Below are positions 54,132-54,638 of a stretch of 64,000 nucleotides of DNA, piece by piece. Below the pieces are notes generated by a model. That model saw only the letters and a program-made list of their open reading frames with translations. It was not told where the DNA came from and did not search any database. Every line of letters begins with the position of its first letter. Position 1 is the first letter of the stretch. This stretch comes from Leifsonia sp. 1010 (GTDB lineage: Bacteria > Actinomycetota > Actinomycetes > Actinomycetales > Microbacteriaceae): the NCBI RefSeq assembly GCF_031455295.1, contig NZ_JAVDSL010000002.1, positions 124,001 to 188,000 on the forward strand, written 5' to 3'. The position numbers were made by a program, and so were the translations under genes.

Positions 54132-54193
54132 GCCGAAGTGCACGTTGTGGCGGTCTCGCACGGCGTGTCGACCGCAACAACGTGCACCTCGGC
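54132..54193. terminator. Long hairpin between convergent genes
   Basis: 24-nt arms (54132-54155 with 54170-54193) pair at 22 positions around a 14-nt loop. It lies 20 nt after the plus-strand stop and 18 nt before the minus-strand stop and can terminate both. Confidence 0.75.
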
Positions 54194-54211: not shown

Positions 54212-54538
54212 TTAGGGGGTGACGTCCTCGGCGGCCTCCTCGGCCTGCTCGCCGTGCTGGACGATGTCGCCGTCCTGGAACAGGATGCCCCTGGCGGTCT
54301 CCCGCCACTGCGGCTCGGCCCGCAGCAGGAACTCGAGCTCCATGCTGAAGTGCTTGTACTCCTCCGCCAGCGAGTCGAGCATGATCGCGCGCGCTACGTC
54401 GTCCTTCTCAACCGCGATGCGCTGCTCGTACCAGCCGATCGCCTCCGCCTCCTCGGAGAGGCTGGCGCACATCCGAGCGAACGTCCTCGTCTCCGCGCTG
54501 AGCTCCTCGGGGGGCTCGTGGTACTGATCCGTTGACAT
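54212..54538 (-). CDS. Encapsulated-ferritin-type (EncFtn) ferroxidase-like protein, 108 aa
   Basis: Two helices carry the EncFtn pattern: SLSEEAEAIGWYEQRIAVEKDDVARAIM (~31-58) and LAEEYKHFSMELEFLLRAEPQWRETARGILF (~61-91). The Glu in helix 1, the Trp-Tyr pair and the E-x-x-H of helix 2 match the di-iron and entry-site residues known in Rhodospirillum EncFtn, which forms a ring of dimers with iron at the interface. EncFtn normally sits inside an encapsulin shell, guided by a C-terminal tail like LTVGSLR. Here the tail is acidic (HGEQAEEAAEDVTP) with no such signal, and no encapsulin gene lies in the window. AAGGGAG precedes ATG 54538. Confidence 0.82.
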   Translation of the reverse strand: MSTDQYHEPPEELSAETRTFARMCASLSEEAEAIGWYEQRIAVEKDDVARAIMLDSLAEEYKHFSMELEFLLRAEPQWRETARGILFQDGDIVQHGEQAEEAAEDVTP

Positions 54539-54638
54539 GGATCTCCCTTCGTCGACACCATCCAATGCCCGGCGATAGGGCCCGGCAAGGCTTCCTGGCC
54601 GGTCGCCGCGCCGCTAGGGTGTGGACAGGGGGTGGCGT

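What the first reader, a model, noticed from the sequence alone, without database searches (positions are those of the whole stretch)
54212..54538. Encapsulated-ferritin-type protein without encapsulin gene or cargo signal
The protein has the EncFtn residue pattern (Glu, Trp-Tyr, Glu-x-x-His) but ends in an acidic tail with no encapsulin targeting motif, and no shell gene is within the visible ~10 kb on either side. EncFtn rings oxidise but cannot store iron without a shell, so a free form raises the question of what takes up the iron.
Basis: partly seen in the sequence, partly recalled or inferred. Interest (0 to 1): 0.62.

Follow-up and report, generated by a model that had tools for sequence, protein, structure and literature searches.

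The report
Shell-less encapsulated-ferritin-like protein (tail-less EncFtn)
A small iron-oxidising protein that normally works inside a protein shell is kept intact in this soil actinobacterium although both the shell gene and the address tag that would place it inside are gone; shell-less relatives were already known, but this group appears to have lost its shell separately.

Summary
The minus-strand gene 54538-54212 encodes a 108-residue EncFtn-family protein (Pfam PF22277, 77 bits against a cut-off of 27; nearest solved folds 3k6c and 5da5) with all ferroxidase ligands. It has no encapsulin targeting peptide (TP), and the whole, 100% complete genome (Leifsonia or close kin) has no encapsulin hit. 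The pattern is general. Every relative with a C-terminal SLGIGSL(K/R) TP has an encapsulin gene beside it (46/46 loci, 18/18 sampled genomes). Tail-less relatives have none nearby, and 23/23 sampled genomes whose only EncFtn is tail-less have no encapsulin anywhere. The ferroxidase core shows no class-specific residue and is under strong purifying selection (dN/dS about 0.09-0.14), so the gene is functional, not a remnant. Tail-less EncFtns as such were reported in 2016 ("Non-EncFtn") and 2024 ("s-FLP", NE0167/3k6c, decamer). What is added: this Micrococcales lineage is nested among TP-bearing cargo and is not the NE0167 type (one shared tail-less clade is rejected, AU p = 0.004), so it is a separate, secondary loss of the shell. 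Likely function: a free cytosolic ferroxidase ring. The iron acceptor is not shown; the only PF00210 ferritin-superfamily proteins in this genome are two Dps. Known kind, modest interest.

The parts
54212..54538 (-). CDS of tail-less EncFtn-like protein, 108 aa
   Evidence: Pfam PF22277 77 bits; PDB 5da5/3k6c by sequence; AlphaFold model pLDDT 86, best Foldseek hit 3k6c; dN/dS 0.09-0.14 against neighbours
54543..54549 (-). likely ribosome-binding site AAGGGAG
   Evidence: sequence; inference
54428..54451 (-). codons of the first ferroxidase motif: E30 ligand through W36-Y37 (E29 and E32 correspond to the Rru E31/E34 metal-entry site)
   Evidence: alignments; invariant or nearly invariant columns
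54350..54361 (-). codons of the E60-x-x-H63 ferroxidase ligands
   Evidence: alignment, invariant; E62/H65 mutants of R. rubrum lose or reduce activity (PMC5012862)
54215..54259 (-). short acidic C-terminal tail (QHGEQAEEAAEDVTP) in the place where cargo relatives carry a linker plus SLGIGSL(K/R)

Best explanation
A member of the EncFtn family that has lost its shell. SHOWN: EncFtn fold and ligands, no targeting peptide, no PF04454 encapsulin in the genome, purifying selection, and strict co-distribution of TP with shell across the lineage. INFERRED from the family: it assembles into the EncFtn ring (two-helix subunits, a di-iron ferroxidase centre at the dimer interface, decamer), stays in the cytosol, and oxidises surplus Fe2+ to Fe3+ with O2. 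It is thus an iron-detoxifying, redox-protecting enzyme rather than an iron store. INFERRED from the tree: it descends from encapsulin cargo; the lineage lost TP and shell, while the core kept the same residues. SPECULATIVE: the product Fe3+ is taken up by one of the two Dps cages, the only PF00210 ferritin-superfamily proteins found in this genome, or is simply released to cellular chelators.
For: Family and fold. No shell; one EncFtn only. TP and shell together: 46/46 TP loci have encapsulin adjacent; tail-less loci with usable flanks have none. In the family and order samples, 9 TP genomes all have encapsulin and 9 tail-less genomes all lack it. In the phylum sample, 9 TP with encapsulin and 14 further tail-less without. 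Of 31 genomes holding tail-less loci, 26 lack encapsulin; the 3 with a full encapsulin also carry a TP paralogue beside it. Nested in TP cargo; not of the NE0167 type. Core unchanged between classes. Selection. Only two Dps.
Against: No biochemistry was found for this lineage; activity and oligomeric state are carried over from relatives at about 35-40% identity. A shell too divergent for PF04454, or of another type, cannot be excluded (the PF19307 control was silent). No neighbour links it to iron: no conserved gene beyond Arthrobacter, and no IdeR-like box upstream. Nothing ties it to Dps apart from coexistence; 11 of 27 shell-less tail-less genomes also have a classical-ferritin-like protein, and two drafts show no PF00210 protein at all.
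Confidence: 0.72

Rival explanations
1. Two-component ferritin: the free EncFtn ring is the fast O2-using ferroxidase and hands Fe3+ (or H2O2 plus Fe2+) to Dps, which stores it.
For: The only PF00210 proteins in the genome are two Dps; EncFtn alone cannot mineralise (PMC5012862).
Against: No synteny, no shared regulation, no conserved interaction surface found; Dps-only genomes are not universal among tail-less carriers.
Confidence: 0.2
2. It is cargo of an unrecognised shell, or of an encapsulin via an undefined short C-terminal signal, as the 2024 review leaves open for s-FLPs.
For: The tail GDIVxHGExAEEAA is itself conserved; PMC11202242 says encapsulation of s-FLPs is sterically possible; the family-2 model control was silent.
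Against: No PF04454 encapsulin in the genome or in 22 of 22 other sampled genomes whose only EncFtn is tail-less; the GDIVxHGE stretch is also present, before the TP, in genuine cargo, so it is not a special signal.
Confidence: 0.06
3. A decaying leftover of a lost encapsulin operon.
For: Patchy presence within the genus (3 of 5 sampled congeners lack it); one relative, G084/L092, is 5'-degraded.
Against: dN/dS 0.09-0.14 with intact ligands and start across many genera.
Confidence: 0.03
4. It has taken on another function (di-metal oxidase, Mn/Zn/Cu binding, metal buffering) and is no longer a ferroxidase.
For: No iron-linked neighbours or IdeR box; free rings lack a storage cavity.
Against: All ferroxidase and entry-site residues kept; no core position separates tail-less from cargo forms.
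Confidence: 0.15

Closest known systems
Tail-less EncFtn / s-FLP of Nitrosomonas europaea NE0167 (PDB 3k6c); 'Non-EncFtn' group of PMC5012862
   Same: Two-helix EncFtn subunit, ferroxidase ligands, short tail without TP, about 95-113 aa; best structural match of the model
   Different: 39% identity; belongs to the other branch of the family; its tail consensus LFTD(E/N)KPIAHE (PMC11202242) differs from GDIVxHGExAEEAA; a single tail-less clade is rejected
Encapsulin cargo EncFtn of actinobacteria (Microbacterium STN6 L019, Occultella L007, Paenarthrobacter L010, Solirubrobacterales)
   Same: About 68-82% identical core, same GDIVxxGExAE segment
   Different: They carry a linker plus SLGIGSL(K/R) and an adjacent encapsulin gene; this protein has neither
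Rhodospirillum rubrum EncFtn Rru_A0973 (5da5)
   Same: Same ligand set and fold
   Different: About 40% identity; has TP and shell, which it needs for iron storage

Membership tests
EncFtn-like family (PF22277) | Profile match over the curated cut-off, full length | tested here: met
   77 bits against 27, 1-85/85
EncFtn-like family (PF22277) | Ferroxidase ligands E, E-x-x-H, W-Y and entry-site glutamates | tested here: met
   E29 E30 E32 W36 Y37 E60 H63
EncFtn-like family (PF22277) | Two antiparallel helices plus short third helix | tested here: met
   AlphaFold helices 15-43, 47-74, 76-83, pLDDT 86; Foldseek top hits 3k6c, 5da5, 5n5f
EncFtn-like family (PF22277) | Decameric ring and ferroxidase activity | not testable with these tools
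   needs expression, native MS and assay
Encapsulated (cargo) EncFtn, TIGR04535 | Score over the TIGR04535 cut-off | tested here: not met
   82.8 bits against 125
Encapsulated (cargo) EncFtn, TIGR04535 | C-terminal encapsulin targeting peptide | tested here: not met
Encapsulated (cargo) EncFtn, TIGR04535 | Encapsulin gene in the operon or genome | tested here: not met
   PF04454 absent from the whole genome
Tail-less EncFtn (Non-EncFtn / s-FLP) | EncFtn core with short C-terminus and no TP | tested here: met
Tail-less EncFtn (Non-EncFtn / s-FLP) | Common descent with the NE0167-like group (not part of the group's published definition; tested as an extra) | tested here: not met
   joint clade rejected, AU p = 0.004, logL 101 lower; NE0167 itself was placed with the older group by similarity, not put in the tree

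The most novel reading that the evidence does not exclude
A former encapsulin cargo enzyme was converted in this Micrococcales lineage into a free cytosolic ferroxidase that works with Dps as a two-component iron-detoxification system, i.e. a split ferritin in which the enzyme and the storage cage are different proteins.
Probability: 0.18. Interest if true: 0.6.

Novelty: new member of a known kind. Interest (0 to 1): 0.34.

Why it matters
The 2024 review leaves open whether tail-less EncFtns are encapsulated after all. In the genomes sampled here that is answered for this lineage by genome content: targeting peptide and shell go together, and genomes whose only EncFtn is tail-less have no encapsulin. 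The lineage is a natural shell-free control with a core nearly identical to genuine cargo (up to about 80%), so what the shell adds to EncFtn chemistry, and where iron goes without it, can be tested with close homologues.

Tried and rejected
IdeR-like box upstream: best matches no better than shuffles in 24 loci. Targeting-peptide remnant downstream in any frame: none in 24 loci. Conserved neighbour as iron partner: none across genera; only 13 related Arthrobacter species share synteny, next to a gene whose translation looks like methionine sulfoxide reductase B. Local neighbours in the window (DUF1275, a GNAT acetyltransferase, DUF1349, alpha/beta hydrolase, small membrane proteins) give no iron link. 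Family-2 encapsulin search: no hit but silent control, so uninformative. Diagnostic core residues separating tail-less from cargo forms: none. L017 (Arthrobacter mobilis) looked like an EncFtn-encapsulin fusion but holds a run of N between the two parts, so it is left unclassified; L077 stops at a contig end and was left out. In one search one handle (G085) was included by mistake, and one genome of the window's genus family (G025/G145) set came from the earlier samples; G085 is not counted. The tree has only 89 columns and unsettled bootstrap, so only the AU tests and nested starred nodes are relied on.

Full report
WHAT IS THERE. The gene runs from ATG 54538 to the stop at 54212 on the minus strand and encodes 108 residues, MSTDQYHEPPEELSAETRTFARMCASLSEEAEAIGWYEQRIAVEKDDVARAIMLDSLAEEYKHFSMELEFLLRAEPQWRETARGILFQDGDIVQHGEQAEEAAEDVTP. 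A ribosome-binding-site-like AAGGGAG precedes it. It matches Pfam EncFtn-like PF22277 end to end (77 bits, cut-off 27) and no other Pfam family; the nearest solved chains are R. rubrum EncFtn 5da5 and N. europaea NE0167 3k6c. Every ferroxidase ligand of R. rubrum EncFtn is kept (E30, E60, H63, plus W36, Y37 and the entry-site E29 and E32). An AlphaFold model from 28 window and locus sequences (pLDDT 86) shows the EncFtn helices; its best Foldseek matches are 3k6c, 5da5 variants and 5n5f.

NO TAIL, NO SHELL. Genuine cargo relatives end in a linker and SLGIGSL(K/R); this protein ends at QAEEAAEDVTP. No targeting-peptide-like stretch follows in any frame. PF04454 has no match in the whole genome (3,875,751 bases, completeness 100), with working controls. 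The genome has one EncFtn.

THE PATTERN ACROSS RELATIVES. A scan of genome contigs gave 80 loci. 46 carry a targeting peptide, and all 46 have an encapsulin ORF overlapping or just downstream; the tail-less ones, leaving out L017 (run of N) and L077 (contig end), have none in the DNA held. Whole-genome samples agree. In 249 genomes of the same family and 347 of the same order there are 18 EncFtn genomes over the cut-off: 9 TP-type, all with adjacent encapsulin, and 9 tail-less (one of them, G084, 5'-degraded), none with encapsulin. In 366 genomes of the phylum, 9 more TP-type all have encapsulin and 14 more tail-less ones lack it; weaker PF22277 hits were not classified. Of 31 genomes that hold tail-less loci, 26 have no encapsulin, three (Paenarthrobacter Z7-10 and PH39-S1, Arthrobacter terrae) have a full encapsulin sitting beside their own TP paralogue, one (Arthrobacter H14-L1) has only a broken encapsulin piece at a contig end, and one draft has weak fragmentary hits.

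EVOLUTION. In a tree of 103 cores the window protein falls with 30 other tail-less rows and 5 TP rows (support 91/91), nested within several starred nodes of TP-bearing cargo. A single clade of these 31 tail-less rows is not rejected (p-AU 0.49); a single clade uniting them with the nine older tail-less actinobacterial proteins, which are closest to NE0167/3k6c by sequence, is rejected (p-AU 0.004, logL 101 lower). So tail-less EncFtns arose at least twice, and this group most simply lost TP and shell secondarily. Alignments are short (89 columns), so the exact number of losses is unsure. Pairwise dN/dS with the four nearest tail-less relatives compared is 0.09-0.14, and no core position separates tail-less from cargo forms: the core is kept as it was.

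HOW IT PROBABLY WORKS. Shown: family, ligands, absence of tag and shell, selection. Inferred from R. rubrum EncFtn (PMC5012862): a ring with a di-iron centre at the dimer interface that oxidises Fe2+ but cannot mineralise it alone. Hence the best reading is a free cytosolic ferroxidase for detoxification rather than storage. The iron acceptor is open. The genome's PF00210 proteins are two Dps (nearest 2yjj and 2z90), with no classical ferritin or bacterioferritin found; among 27 shell-less tail-less genomes searched (window included; some species may be present twice under two handles), 11 also have a high-scoring classical-ferritin-like protein (four of these proteins read) and two drafts none, so no fixed partner emerges. 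Neighbours and upstream DNA give no regulatory clue.

WHAT IS KNOWN. PMC5012862 (2016) already had a 'Non-EncFtn' group; PMC11202242 (2024) calls them s-FLPs, notes they were first classed as non-encapsulated, and says it is unclear whether an undefined signal could still load them. Searches of the paper library found no study of tail-less EncFtn in this lineage and no description of shell loss; that library lacks most subscription papers. The finding is therefore a new member, in a separately derived lineage, of a known but uncharacterised kind.

VERDICT. Observation confirmed, interpretation supported, novelty modest. The useful gain is the strict TP-shell co-distribution and the evidence for a second, secondary loss, which make the question of what EncFtn does without a shell directly testable with close homologues.

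Noticed in passing
window 54133-54191: Strong intergenic palindrome (CGAGGTGCACGTTGTTGCGGTC...GACCGCAACAACGTGCACCTCG) between two convergent genes, -54 kcal/mol as RNA, z -6.2; a second, imperfect copy lies at L186:5655-5712 in 0.2 Mb of sampled own genome, so it looks like a REP-like repeat family.
   Followed up: partly
L117:10-543 (Arthrobacter sp. H14-L1 contig C19): Encapsulin gene that looks broken (internal parts missing) at a contig end, in a genome with an intact tail-less EncFtn elsewhere: a possible snapshot of shell loss.
   Followed up: partly
L001, L013 (Cryobacterium) against L004, L025 (Arthrobacter): Tail-less EncFtn genes of two bacterial families group together and share similar upstream DNA, which suggests horizontal transfer.
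   Followed up: no
L006/L010, L015/L046, G595: Three genomes carry both a TP cargo EncFtn with encapsulin and a tail-less paralogue; mixed rings could be possible there.
   Followed up: partly
L017:9932-11425 (Arthrobacter mobilis): EncFtn and encapsulin in one open frame with a His/Gly-rich linker, but with a run of N inside: likely a mis-assembly rather than a fusion.
   Followed up: no
L092 (G084): 5'-degraded EncFtn in a relative of the same family: an apparent pseudogene.
   Followed up: no
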